From contig NZ_VLLL01000013.1 in assembly GCF_007994225.1 (NCBI RefSeq), positions 1-64,000 of the forward strand: a DNA stretch of 64,000 nt, in the 5' to 3' direction. Both the position numbers and the translations under genes were made by a program. Positions within the stretch are counted from its first letter, which is position 1; the number at the start of each line of letters is the position of its first letter. The notes beneath the pieces are model-generated. The model was not told where the DNA came from and made no database searches. It worked only from the letters and a program-made list of their open reading frames with translations. The DNA comes from Stackebrandtia albiflava. Lineage in GTDB: Bacteria > Actinomycetota > Actinomycetes > Mycobacteriales > Micromonosporaceae. Positions 2,310 through 33,265 of this stretch are shown here, piece after piece.

Positions 2310-2880
2310 TCAGCGTTCGGTGCGGCCGCGGACCTCGGAACGCGTGTCCGAGACCGTGTCCTCGCGGACATCCGACGCCCGGCCGCGCCCGGTCGGGTTC
2401 ACCTGTGGGAACTCTCCCGCCGAACGGTCGCCCGGTTCGGAACCCTCGGTGCGCGCCTCGCCGTACCGTACCGCCGGACCCGGGTCGTCACTCGGAGACG
2501 GGACGTTGACGAGTGCCCAGATCACGAACACGTCCAGCGCGACGATCACTATCGACCAGAGTGGATAGTACGGGATGAACAGGAAGTTCCCCACCGCCGA
2601 GACCACGGCCAACGCGATACCGATGGCCCTCGCGACCATGGAACGGCTGTACAGGTAGAGGCCGGTCAACAGGATCAGCACGCCGAGCACCGTGTGGATC
2701 CAGCCCCACCAGGTGGTGTCGAGCCCGAAGGTGTACTCCGGCGTGGTGACGAACACCGTGTCCTCCGCGATCGCCGCGATGCCCATGGTGATCTGGAACA
2801 GTCCGATCACCAGCAGCGCGGTGGCGGCGAACATGGTGCCGCCGATCGCCCAGGCGTCCCGGGCGGCGTTTCGAGCCATG
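2310..2880 (-). CDS. DUF7144-like four-TM membrane protein
   Basis: A 189-residue protein from ATG 2880, preceded by a GGGAGAG ribosome-binding site. Four transmembrane helices fill residues about 10-135: GTMFAATALLVIGLFQITMG, then TWWGWIHTVLGVLILLTGLYL, then a helix around IGIALAVVSAVGNFLF, then SIVIVALDVFVIWALV. The W-W-G-W-I-H loop and the final FVIWALV helix match the small actinobacterial family I know as DUF7144. The C-terminal 50 residues are charged, low-complexity and cytoplasmic. Function is unknown. It probably forms a transcription unit with the next membrane gene. Confidence 0.65.
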
Positions 2881-31312: not shown

Positions 31313-32932
31313 TCACCCGGGACGGTCGGAGCCCTCCCACGGCCAGGTGCCGTCACGACCCGCCTCCAGCAACGGGATCATCCGGAACCCCGCGTCGGTG
31401 AGACCGCCGAAGGTGTGCCGGGTGCCGTGGCCCGAAGGCGCGTGACCGTACCGGTATCCGGCCAGGTTCCAGGTGTAGACCGGCACGTGCGCGGGCACCG
31501 CGCGGGTCACGTCCGGACCGTTGCCGTGCGCCTGCTCGTCGGTCAGGATGATCACCCGGTCGTGGTCCCGGTAGTGGCGGGTGACGGCGACCTCGGTCTC
31601 CGTGCCGCCTCCGATGAAGTACCCGTCGTTGCGCCAGCGGGACAACGCGCGCAGCACCGACTCCCGCTTCCGGAGCTTGAACACCTTCGTGCCCTCGTGC
31701 TGCTCGTGCCCGTACCAGGATCCCGAGAACGACACGATGGTGGCGCGCTCACTGCGATCGGCGATGGCCAGGCCGAACAGGGTCGCCGCGTCCCAGCGCA
31801 TGAGTGTGCCGTCGCGTGAGAAGCGGGCGTTCATCGACCCCGACGTGTCGACCAGGATCAGCGTCCGGCCCGGCAGCGGCGCGATGTTGGCGAGCGAGTG
31901 CTGCAGCGCGGTCTCCAACGGGTACGACCACCGCAGCGACGGTGCCGCGCGGTACGCCGACAGGAACCGCATCGGCAGCTGCCGTGACCGAGCGACCTCA
32001 CCCGGGGCGGAGAGCCGTGCCGCCACGGTCGCGGCGACCTCGTCGGAGACCCCCGCCTCGTCGAAGTTGCGCAGATTCCGCAGGCAGGCCATGTATCCCA
32101 TGGACGGGATCATCGCCTCCCACAGGCGTGCCTTGTCGGCCTTGGGGCCGGCGAGGGACAGGGCGTCCTCCCAGGCCATTCCGGCCGCCCGCAGTGCGTC
32201 GGGATCGGTCAGGACCGTGGGGTCGTCGGCGACGCGCGCCCGCAGCGCCGCGTTGCGGGCCACGACCGGCAGGACGTCCGCGTCCACCGGGTTGCCGCGG
32301 TCGCGGCGACGACCGAGCGCGTGGTCGAACAGGGCACCCTGCCAGGGCTTGTCGGCGGCCGGGGCGGGGTGGGTCAGTTCCAGGACGTCACCGAACCGGA
32401 CCGCGTGCGACGACGTGTCGTACTTCAACAGTGACCGTTCACTGTAGAGTCGGCGTGCCGCGTCGGCGATGCCCCGCTTGACGGGCTTGGGAATCCGGCG
32501 GCCGTACCGCCCGAACCAGTAGGCGATCGCCTCACCCGGCTCGTCGGCGCGCTGCAGCACCGAGGCGGTGATCTGCCGTCCACCCGGCAGGCCCGCGTCG
32601 CGCAGTGCCTTCGCGGCCTCCAGGCCGCCCACCAGGGCCGCCGAACGCATGTGCGCGCCGGTGCGCAGCCACGCCAGGAACGCACGCGTCCATGCGGGGT
32701 CCTCGACCGCCACGGTGTGGACGAGGGTCCGGAAGCGGTCGTCCCGGCCGTCGGCCGACTCGTAGAACGTGGGTTCGCCGACCATGTTGGCGACCGCGAG
32801 CAGGAACAGTTCGCTCTTCGGGTCCCTCGCGAAACCGGGGGCGCCCTCCGCCGTGCGGGCGGCGGGTTCGGCGGTGGCGGTGATGACGGAACCGACCGCC
32901 GCGCGGACCTTCGACGTGTTGAACTTGCTCAT
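31313..32932 (-). CDS. rsr: TROVE-domain protein, bacterial Ro60 (Rsr)
   Basis: A 539-residue Ro60 orthologue. The TROVE HEAT-repeat ring covers about 35-350, and the von Willebrand A domain about 355-539 with the MIDAS DTSGS (Asp362, Ser364, Ser366) and later TDEQAHG. Ro60 proteins bind misfolded RNA ends in the ring cavity and Y RNAs on the outer surface. In Deinococcus, Rsr assists rRNA maturation and degradation with PNPase. ATG 32932 is chosen because the family N-terminus follows; an upstream in-frame extension looks non-coding. A Y-RNA-like element lies 190 bp upstream on the same strand. Confidence 0.93.
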   Translation of the reverse strand: MSKFNTSKVRAAVGSVITATAEPAARTAEGAPGFARDPKSELFLLAVANMVGEPTFYESADGRDDRFRTLVHTVAVEDPAWTRAFLAWLRTGAHMRSAALVGGLEAAKALRDAGLPGGRQITASVLQRADEPGEAIAYWFGRYGRRIPKPVKRGIADAARRLYSERSLLKYDTSSHAVRFGDVLELTHPAPAADKPWQGALFDHALGRRRDRGNPVDADVLPVVARNAALRARVADDPTVLTDPDALRAAGMAWEDALSLAGPKADKARLWEAMIPSMGYMACLRNLRNFDEAGVSDEVAATVAARLSAPGEVARSRQLPMRFLSAYRAAPSLRWSYPLETALQHSLANIAPLPGRTLILVDTSGSMNARFSRDGTLMRWDAATLFGLAIADRSERATIVSFSGSWYGHEQHEGTKVFKLRKRESVLRALSRWRNDGYFIGGGTETEVAVTRHYRDHDRVIILTDEQAHGNGPDVTRAVPAHVPVYTWNLAGYRYGHAPSGHGTRHTFGGLTDAGFRMIPLLEAGRDGTWPWEGSDRPG

Positions 32933-33032
32933 GGTGGCCTCGGAGTCTCGGTCGCCGGTGGAGCGTCGAAGCCCTCCGGCGAGACCGTGCCCGAGTTCGA
33001 GGCGGAGCGGGAACATGCCGACGGATCGGTGA

Positions 33033-33048
33033 CGGACCCGAGGGTCCG
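33033..33048 (-). other. short hairpin between the Y RNA candidate and rsr
   Basis: CGGACC and GGTCCG pair over a 4-nt loop, about 100 bp before the rsr start. It may be a processing or attenuation hairpin if the RNA and rsr are co-transcribed, or chance. Confidence 0.25.
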
Positions 33049-33121
33049 GGTACGATCCGCACGGCATCCGTTGAAAGAGGAAGTAGCCCACCCCTTCGCA
33101 CCGGGCACGGTCGTCGTCGTG

Positions 33122-33258
33122 TCCACGCCCGAGATCGAGTCGACGCCGGTACGTGCCGCTCTACCGATTGAGCTACCACCACGGGGGTGGGCGGGACTCG
33201 AACCCGCAACCTGCCGATTAACAGTCGAAGTAACCGTCGTCTGCGCACCGGGCGTGGA
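33122..33258 (-). ncRNA. Y RNA (YrlA-like) candidate with a circularly permuted tRNA-like module
   Basis: Read on the minus strand. TCCACGCCCG (33258-33249) pairs perfectly with CGGGCGTGGA (33131-33122), and GACGACGGTTAC (33241-33230) pairs with GTACCGGCGTC (33152-33142) with one mismatch and one bulge. Inside this stem come an anticodon-arm-like hairpin with the 7-nt loop CTGTTAA (33224-33218), a variable-loop-like AGGTT and a T arm GCGGG-TTCGAGT-CCCGC (33207-33191). A 5-bp acceptor-like hairpin CCACC/GGTGG (33190-33176), TA like U8-A9 and a D arm GCTC-AATCGGTA-GAGC (33173-33158) follow. The D arm thus comes last, so this is not a functional tRNA. Bacterial Y RNAs carry a Ro-binding stem plus a tRNA-like module and lie near rsr, as here. 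Confidence 0.75.
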
Positions 33259-33265
33259 AGTCTTC

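What the first reader, a model, noticed from the sequence alone, without database searches (positions are those of the whole stretch)
33122..33258. tRNA-like RNA in permuted order upstream of the Ro60 gene: a Y RNA candidate
On the minus strand, anticodon-like, variable-like, T-arm, acceptor-hairpin and D-arm segments occur in that order, a circular permutation with new ends between the D arm and the anticodon arm. A 10-bp perfect stem and a further bulged stem close it. The element lies 190 bp upstream of the TROVE gene, on the same strand. Bacterial YrlA RNAs are known to combine a Ro-binding stem with a tRNA-mimicking module near rsr. The completeness of the T loop (TTCGAGT), the D loop with GG and the Asn-like CTGTTAA loop is striking; tRNA-processing or modifying enzymes might act on it.
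Basis: partly seen in the sequence, partly recalled or inferred. Interest (0 to 1): 0.85.

Follow-up and report, generated by a model that had tools for sequence, protein, structure and literature searches.

The report
Y RNA copying a whole tRNA
Next to the gene for a Ro60-type protein this actinobacterium carries a small RNA that imitates a complete tRNA in rearranged order, including an anticodon arm that the standard family model does not describe, so such RNAs may deal with enzymes that act on tRNA anticodons.

Summary
Window 33258-33122 (minus strand) is a YrlA-type bacterial Y RNA, 189 nt upstream of the Ro60-like gene rsr (ATG at 32932). Rfam YrlA scores 44.9 bits, E 8.8e-9 for 601 bases, below its gathering score of 69. 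Circular permutation between Y RNA and tRNA is already published. What looks new is the anticodon arm. In the Rfam consensus the strand before the variable region pairs with the strand after the D arm. Here it closes its own hairpin with exactly seven loop bases. So it does in 54 of 126 parsed rsr-linked elements, window included (strict rule; U33 54/54, A38 53/54, R37 49/54); 50 of 126 have the Rfam arrangement. 35 relatives show compensatory changes in the arm and a co-varying Levitt pair 15-48. Triplets vary, but 36 of 54 loops end U36A37A38, a published determinant for t6A modification. The window's own predicted fold prefers another hairpin by 2.9 kcal/mol, so the arm rests on comparison. 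Best reading: an Rsr-bound Y RNA presenting a complete tRNA mimic to PNPase and tRNA-acting enzymes (inferred). The two primary Y RNA papers were not held, so novelty is provisional.

The parts
33122..33258 (-). whole YrlA-type Y RNA
   Evidence: RF02553 hit 33137-33240; R1 hit 33120-33260 at 138.5 bits, but the window is one of R1's 14 training rows
33249..33258 (-). 5' strand of the 10-bp closing stem
   Evidence: 8 pairs of this helix counted in 14 rows, 94.6% of cells paired, 5 of 8 pairs with two-sided changes
33122..33131 (-). 3' strand of the 10-bp closing stem
33241..33248 (-). conserved 5' motif GTGCGCAG of the inferred Ro-binding internal loop
   Evidence: T12, G13, C14, G15, A17, G18 invariant and G11 nearly invariant in 14 rows; Ro binding inferred
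33132..33141 (-). 3' side of the inferred Ro-binding internal loop (GACTCGATCT)
33230..33241 (-). 5' strand of the second, bulged stem
   Evidence: fold; helix 2: 87.9% of cells paired, 7 of 10 pairs with two-sided changes
33142..33152 (-). 3' strand of the second, bulged stem
33213..33229 (-). anticodon-like arm, TTCGA-CTGTTAA-TCGGC (positions 27-43); pair 27-43 is U-C, not standard, in the window
   Evidence: not in the window's own minimum-energy fold
33208..33212 (-). 5-nt variable region AGGTT; its last base is position 48 of the Levitt pair (A15-U48 here)
33191..33207 (-). T arm with loop TTCGAGT
33176..33190 (-). acceptor-like hairpin, 5 bp closed by CCCGT; no free 3' CCA end
33158..33175 (-). 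U8 A9 and D arm GCTC-AATCGGTA-GAGC
32982..33113 (-). second Y RNA-like element, without T arm and without the TAGCTC D arm, between the first and rsr
   Evidence: R1 52 bits, E 5.3e-10
31313..32932 (-). rsr, TROVE (Ro60-like) protein, 539 aa
   Evidence: PF05731 E 4.8e-16; VWA_2 E 1.5e-4 but below its cut-off; the only TROVE match in the genome

Best explanation
It is a YrlA-type Y RNA. Its closing stem with the conserved internal loop holds Rsr (inferred by homology). Its other half folds like a whole tRNA opened between the D arm and the anticodon arm and closed at the acceptor end by a short hairpin loop (supported by covariation). It presents this mimic to an effector, by analogy PNPase, and to tRNA-modifying enzymes (inferred). 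Unlike the Rfam YrlA consensus it also shows a closed seven-base anticodon-type loop, so enzymes that read anticodon loops can in principle act on it (inferred; first candidate the A37 modification t6A, because of U36A37A38).
For: Rfam YrlA E 8.8e-9. Adjacent rsr. In 13 of 14 rsr loci of named genomes a similar element precedes rsr; L042 shows none there and none with R1. Of 249 distinct R1 hits in the loci given to lie 0-1500 nt upstream of rsr on its strand, in 106 loci. These loci were largely chosen by R1 or by Rsr, and 21 RF02553 loci without rsr were not given, so this is linkage in a chosen set, not prevalence. Covariation on 14 rows including the window: 95.3% of cells paired, 22 pairs with two-sided changes against 15.1 shuffled. 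On 35 others: anticodon helix 98.3% paired, 21 two-sided cells against 4.7, 0 of 500 shuffles. Levitt pair 15-48 G-C or A-U in 121 of 126, 31 of 31 in A4. Hairpins directly before a 5-nt variable region: 7-base loops 57 of 126; 5, 6, 8, 9, 10, 11 bases: 0, 2, 1, 5, 5, 5; 3 and 4 bases: 11 and 20. U33 54/54 and A38 53/54 were not selection criteria. Loops end U36A37A38 in 36 of 54, and base 37 follows base 36 (Fisher p 1.4e-4 for all 54; 2.7e-4 for 46 deduplicated; 0.047 for 24 distinct loops). PMC9654439 (passages): U36A37A38 is a universal t6A determinant and C33 an anti-determinant for the bacterial enzyme.
Against: No transcript evidence. The window's fold does not form the arm; the mean probability of the three inner pairs exceeds 0.5 in only 11 of 54 class A sequences. 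On A4 the number of pairs with two-sided changes is not above shuffles (2 against 1.6; 314 of 500 as high). Inner pairing of the arm was a selection criterion for the 35 rows, which inflates the paired percentage; the parser also demanded A or G at position 15 and a D stem, so their conservation is partly selected. Related sequences are not independent. No promoter or terminator pattern was found by scan. The RF02553 score is below the curated threshold. Rsr and PNPase binding are by analogy only.
Confidence: 0.82

Rival explanations
1. Ordinary YrlA: the anticodon arm only completes the tRNA-like fold for PNPase or TruB/DusA binding and its loop has no partner of its own.
For: Rsr-linked elements without a closed arm are about as common: 50 class B against 54 class A of 126, and 8 loci carry both; the middle triplet varies freely.
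Against: U33, A38, the 7-base length and the 36-37 coupling are kept, more than a bare spacer needs.
Confidence: 0.4
2. Decoy or sensor for anticodon nucleases: the loop is cut or bound in place of real tRNAs, tying Rsr to tRNA damage and repair.
For: Of 5 actinophage records looked at (83 phage records match Rsr), 3 have the Ro-like gene among tRNA genes and one has an RNA ligase gene directly before it (Kela). Armed copies occur in a phage and a plasmid. PMC7790460 (passages) proposes YrlA as a competitive inhibitor of an anticodon nuclease and saw no fragments of Salmonella YrlA. RtcB is encoded in this genome.
Against: RtcB is on another contig; triplets are diverse; no cleavage data.
Confidence: 0.15
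3. Permuted tRNA gene: the acceptor loop is processed and the ends are joined to give a working tRNA-Asn.
For: Complete arms; order like permuted tRNA genes (recalled); CCA directly after seven acceptor positions and one base in 6 of 67 relaxed class A elements.
Against: In the window the acceptor is 5 bp with a 5-base loop and no CCA after it; among the 67, with stems extended as far as they pair, the loop is most often 2 or 4 bases (14 each); the genome has an ordinary tRNA-Asn whose arm differs at pair 31-39; the closing stem co-varies.
Confidence: 0.03
4. Remnant of two tandem tRNA genes: 3' part of one, 5' part of the next.
For: Tandem tRNA-Asn genes score as well as the window with the module model, so such an origin is plausible.
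Against: ARAGORN finds no tRNA in the window; closing stem and Ro-side motif are kept and co-vary before rsr in several genera.
Confidence: 0.03
5. Leader structure regulating rsr mRNA rather than a free RNA.
For: Same strand, close upstream; no terminator pattern between it and rsr in the window.
Against: tRNA core conserved to a tertiary contact; 189 nt and a second Y-like element lie between it and rsr; an armed copy lies in a tRNA array without rsr in the fetched stretch.
Confidence: 0.05

Closest known systems
YrlA (RF02553), Salmonella type; structure 6CU1
   Same: T arm, short acceptor hairpin, D arm in the same order; closing stem; next to rsr
   Different: in the Rfam consensus (structure line) the strand before the variable region pairs with the strand after the D arm; here it closes its own hairpin with a 7-base loop
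Mycobacterium smegmatis Yrl RNA (named in PMC4726728, passages, as bound by Rsr)
   Same: actinobacterial Y RNA bound by Rsr
   Different: its arm topology could not be checked; sequence and primary paper not at hand
Deinococcus Y RNA (RF01053)
   Same: Ro/Rsr partner RNA
   Different: only 15.9 bits, E 5.1, and at 32984-33108, the place of the second element, not of this one
Permuted tRNA genes of algae and archaea (recalled, no call)
   Same: 3' half precedes 5' half
   Different: no evidence of processing or ligation; acceptor loop short, no CCA after it in the window

Membership tests
YrlA (RF02553) | score at or above Rfam gathering threshold (69 bits) | tested here: not met
   44.9 bits, E 8.8e-9; none of the 61 genomes sampled has a hit over it either. 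Filed as a variant, not as a threshold member
YrlA (RF02553) | T arm, acceptor hairpin and D arm in that order | tested here: met
YrlA (RF02553) | closing stem formed by 5' and 3' ends | tested here: met
   10 bp; helix 1
YrlA (RF02553) | helix between the strand before the variable region and the strand after the D arm (consensus) | tested here: not met
   window is class A only under the rule; it closes 39-43 on the strand 5' of the loop
YrlA (RF02553) | linkage to rsr | tested here: met
YrlA (RF02553) | binds Rsr and PNPase; carries D and pseudouridine | not testable with these tools
   published for other species (PMC8394870, passages)
tRNA (RF00005) | gathering score 29 bits; ARAGORN call | tested here: not met
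   16.9 bits, E 1.2; no ARAGORN gene in the window
permuted tRNA gene | acceptor with CCA or processing sites and a joining site | tested here: not met
   no CCA after the window's acceptor strand; joining not testable

The most novel reading that the evidence does not exclude
Actinobacteria and their phages use a distinct Y RNA topology, a permuted tRNA with a complete, modifiable anticodon arm, as an Rsr-bound bait that is read by anticodon-loop enzymes (t6A synthase, anticodon nucleases), linking Ro60 to tRNA damage.
Probability: 0.2. Interest if true: 0.82.

Novelty: new variant of a known kind. Interest (0 to 1): 0.57.

Why it matters
The role of the tRNA-like half of bacterial Y RNAs is still discussed (PMC7790460 offers it as an open possibility). 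Two topologies of the same mimic, in 8 loci side by side, one with and one without an anticodon loop, give a natural comparison to test whether tRNA enzymes or anticodon nucleases are the partners. It also warns that such RNAs can be annotated as tRNAs (a Gordonia phage 'tRNA-Arg').

Tried and rejected
Isoacceptor-specific mimicry (does the D arm match the real tRNA with the same triplet?): not supported. 342 of 2000 shuffles at least as high with 66 of 76 items and a reference set contaminated by Y RNAs; 1152 of 2000 with 37 cleaned tRNAs of 281 and 45 of 76 items. No clean reference for CUC, UCC or GAU, so the test is weak.

Alternative hairpin of the window's minimum-energy fold (CUGUU-AAUC-GGCAG): not conserved in A4, 61.1% of cells paired, covariation not above shuffles, against 98.3% for the anticodon arm.

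Fold energy as evidence: z -1.21, dropped. Promoter: the scan found nothing in the window. Among 67 relaxed class A elements a TANNNT starts 7 nt upstream of the model start in 13, at most 2 at any other distance; several of the 25 upstream stretches printed there end another Y-like element.

Errors and dropped rows. One search read a wrong column and gave 16 rsr-near hits; correct this to 214 of 249 distinct hits (265 rows, 16 duplicates). 140 of the 164 loci then held, and the window, were given; left out were 3 copies of the window region and 21 RF02553 loci in which saw no rsr. 88 of the 214 were not parsed by the first parser and are outside the class counts, among them L040:2959 (a plain class A) and elements with other D arms. 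17 of the 106 loci have neither class A nor class B among their hits. The strict rule leaves 22 of 126 in neither class, 10 of them with a 7-base hairpin by the relaxed rule; relaxed class A is 67 of 126, of which 3 are class B by the strict rule. One search failed on a string one character short; the Levitt figures are.

Surveys. R1 at E <= 1e-15: 7 of 396 genomes of the phylum sample. At 1e-10: 70 of 250 of the family sample. At 1e-4: 261 of 394 of the class sample, a number inflated by tandem tRNA genes (L107, L123). With RF02553, 37 of 61 relatives match at E <= 0.01, none over the cut-off, and 9 of 14 control genomes ring too.

Full report
What is there. On the minus strand at 33258-33122 a perfect 10-bp stem closes a second, bulged stem and a tRNA likeness in the order anticodon arm, variable region, T arm, acceptor-like hairpin, D arm. 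ARAGORN finds no tRNA in the window and no Rfam family reaches its gathering score. With the lax search the best family is YrlA, 44.9 bits, E 8.8e-9 for 601 bases; tRNA follows at 16.9 bits, E 1.2. Downstream on the same strand lies rsr, a TROVE protein and the only one found in the genome. A second Y-like element without the tRNA module lies between them at 33113-32982 (52 bits, E 5.3e-10).

Relatives. A scan of named genomes gave 14 rsr loci (Dactylosporangium, Nocardia, Streptomyces, Micromonospora, Actinomadura, Saccharothrix). In 13 of 14 a similar element lies in front of rsr; L042 has none by that pattern, nor with R1. Fourteen rows including the window (A1) gave a structure with 95.3% of cells paired and 22 pairs with two-sided changes (15.1 in shuffles); slid partners fall to 38-45%. 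Model R1 was used on a class and a family sample and on fetched loci. Because R1 contains the window, the window's R1 score is not independent evidence. R2, built from 35 others that R1 had found, gives 73.3 bits. The same call shows that tandem tRNA-Asn genes reach 72 bits, so a module-only model cannot separate the two.

Two topologies. Of 249 distinct hits, 214 are upstream of rsr on its strand and 126 of these were parsed. In 54 (53 plus one that fits both rules; window included) the strand 39-43 pairs with a strand directly 5' of it and closes a 7-base loop (class A). In 50 it pairs with the strand after the D arm (class B, the arrangement of the Rfam consensus line). 22 fit neither. In tRNA terms class B is opened at the anticodon loop, class A between positions 26 and 27. 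Eight loci have both. The loop of class A has U33 in 54 of 54, A38 in 53, a purine at 37 in 49; position 32 is C in 45. Loop length was tested by counting hairpins of every length before a 5-base variable region: 57 of 126 for seven bases, 0 to 5 for five, six and eight to eleven, 11 and 20 for three and four.

Tertiary fold. The Levitt pair 15-48 was in no search structure, though the parser demanded A or G at 15. It is G-C or A-U in 121 of 126 (3 G-G, 2 A-C) and in 31 of 31 rows of A4 with letters on both sides. This is the strongest sign that a tRNA-like core, not only its hairpins, is kept.

Against the arm. The window's predicted fold prefers CUGUU-AAUC-GGCAG, and forcing the arm costs 2.9 kcal/mol. 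Only 11 of 54 class A sequences give the arm's inner pairs a mean probability above 0.5, but the class B stem fares no better (7 of 50), so single-sequence folding judges neither well. On the 35 rows of A4 the rival hairpin shows no covariation (61.1% paired); the arm does (98.3%, 21 two-sided cells against 4.7), with two reservations: inner pairing was a criterion for choosing those rows, and the number of pairs with two-sided changes (2) is not above shuffles (1.6).

The loop. Triplets vary: GUU 10, CUU 9, GCU, GAU and CAU 6 each, CCU 3, twelve others 1 or 2. 36 of 54 end in U36A37A38. A review states that U36A37A38 is a universal determinant of t6A-modifying enzymes and C33 an anti-determinant for the bacterial one (PMC9654439, passages seen). 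The window's loop CUGUUAA fits. Base 37 depends on base 36 (only weakly, p 0.047, if each distinct loop is counted once). The genome's own tRNA-Asn has a G-C pair at 31-39 where the Y RNA has A-U, so the arm is not an exact copy of it. D arms do not match the triplet's real tRNA beyond shuffles.

Phages, plasmids and tRNA arrays. 83 phage records encode a match to Rsr; I looked at stretches of five. In two Streptomyces phages and one Arthrobacter phage the Ro-like gene lies among tRNA genes; in Streptomyces phage Kela an RNA ligase gene directly precedes it. An armed Y RNA is present in Gordonia phage VanLee (106.2 bits), where its 5' part is the only annotated tRNA of the stretch, tRNA-Arg(tct), and in a Rhodococcus plasmid (92.7 bits); in phage BRock (79.8 bits) I read a four-pair arm from the alignment. 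One more lies inside an array of 15 tRNA genes.

What is known. ARTEMIS describes Y RNA 6CU1 as circularly permuted against tRNA (PMC11472068, passages). YrlA carries D and pseudouridine made by DusA and TruB, its stem binds Rsr and its tRNA-like domain is described as binding PNPase (PMC8394870, passages). Salmonella YrlA gave no fragments when tRNAs were cut, and the authors suggest it may inhibit the anticodon nuclease (PMC7790460, passages). M. smegmatis Yrl RNA binds Rsr (PMC4726728, passages). Chen 2014, Wang 2018 and three reviews are not held. My searches (for most papers I saw the listing only, and the lists were capped at 25 of 204, 25 of 93, 10 of 15 and 12 of 90) showed no paper on an anticodon arm in Y RNAs. 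That is a statement about those searches, not about the literature.

Mechanism. Shown by comparison: the rsr linkage, the conserved closing stems and the tRNA-like core. Inferred by homology: Rsr on the closing stem, PNPase or another effector on the tRNA-like half. Inferred from the loop: an anticodon-reading enzyme, first candidate t6A synthesis. Speculative: a bait for anticodon nucleases.

Noticed in passing
window 32982-33113 (-): Second Y RNA-like element with the conserved ends but without T arm or D arm; Rfam's Deinococcus Y RNA has a chance-level hit at the same place (15.9 bits, E 5.1). 74 of 106 rsr loci with hits have two or more.
   Followed up: partly
L105 2428-2566 (-), own genome C1:1374927-1375065: Another YrlA-like RNA with the Ro-side motif (82.6 bits), not near rsr; this genome has a single TROVE match, on another contig.
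   Followed up: partly
L106 about 2358-2603 (+), own genome: Two neighbouring T arm / acceptor hairpin / D arm modules (43.8 and 50.1 bits with R2) that lack the GTGCGCAG motif in the stretch read and are not near rsr.
   Followed up: no
L070 1501-1646 (-): Armed Y RNA (loop CUGCGGA) inside an array of 15 tRNA genes.
   Followed up: partly
L168 2198-2345, Gordonia phage VanLee: Annotated tRNA-Arg(tct) at 2204-2275 is the 5' part of an armed Y RNA: a likely misannotation; ARAGORN repeats it.
   Followed up: yes
L169, Streptomyces phage Kela: RNA ligase gene directly before the Ro-like gene.
   Followed up: no
L050 1350-1495, L051 1776-1922, L067 1212-1362, L037 3305-3452: Rsr-linked Y RNAs with D arms resembling other tRNAs (Glu-, Gln-, Leu-like; these names are recalled).
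   Followed up: partly
L107, L123: Tandem tRNA-Asn genes with a 4-nt spacer match the Y RNA models at 71-72 bits: a possible evolutionary source and a trap for surveys.
   Followed up: partly
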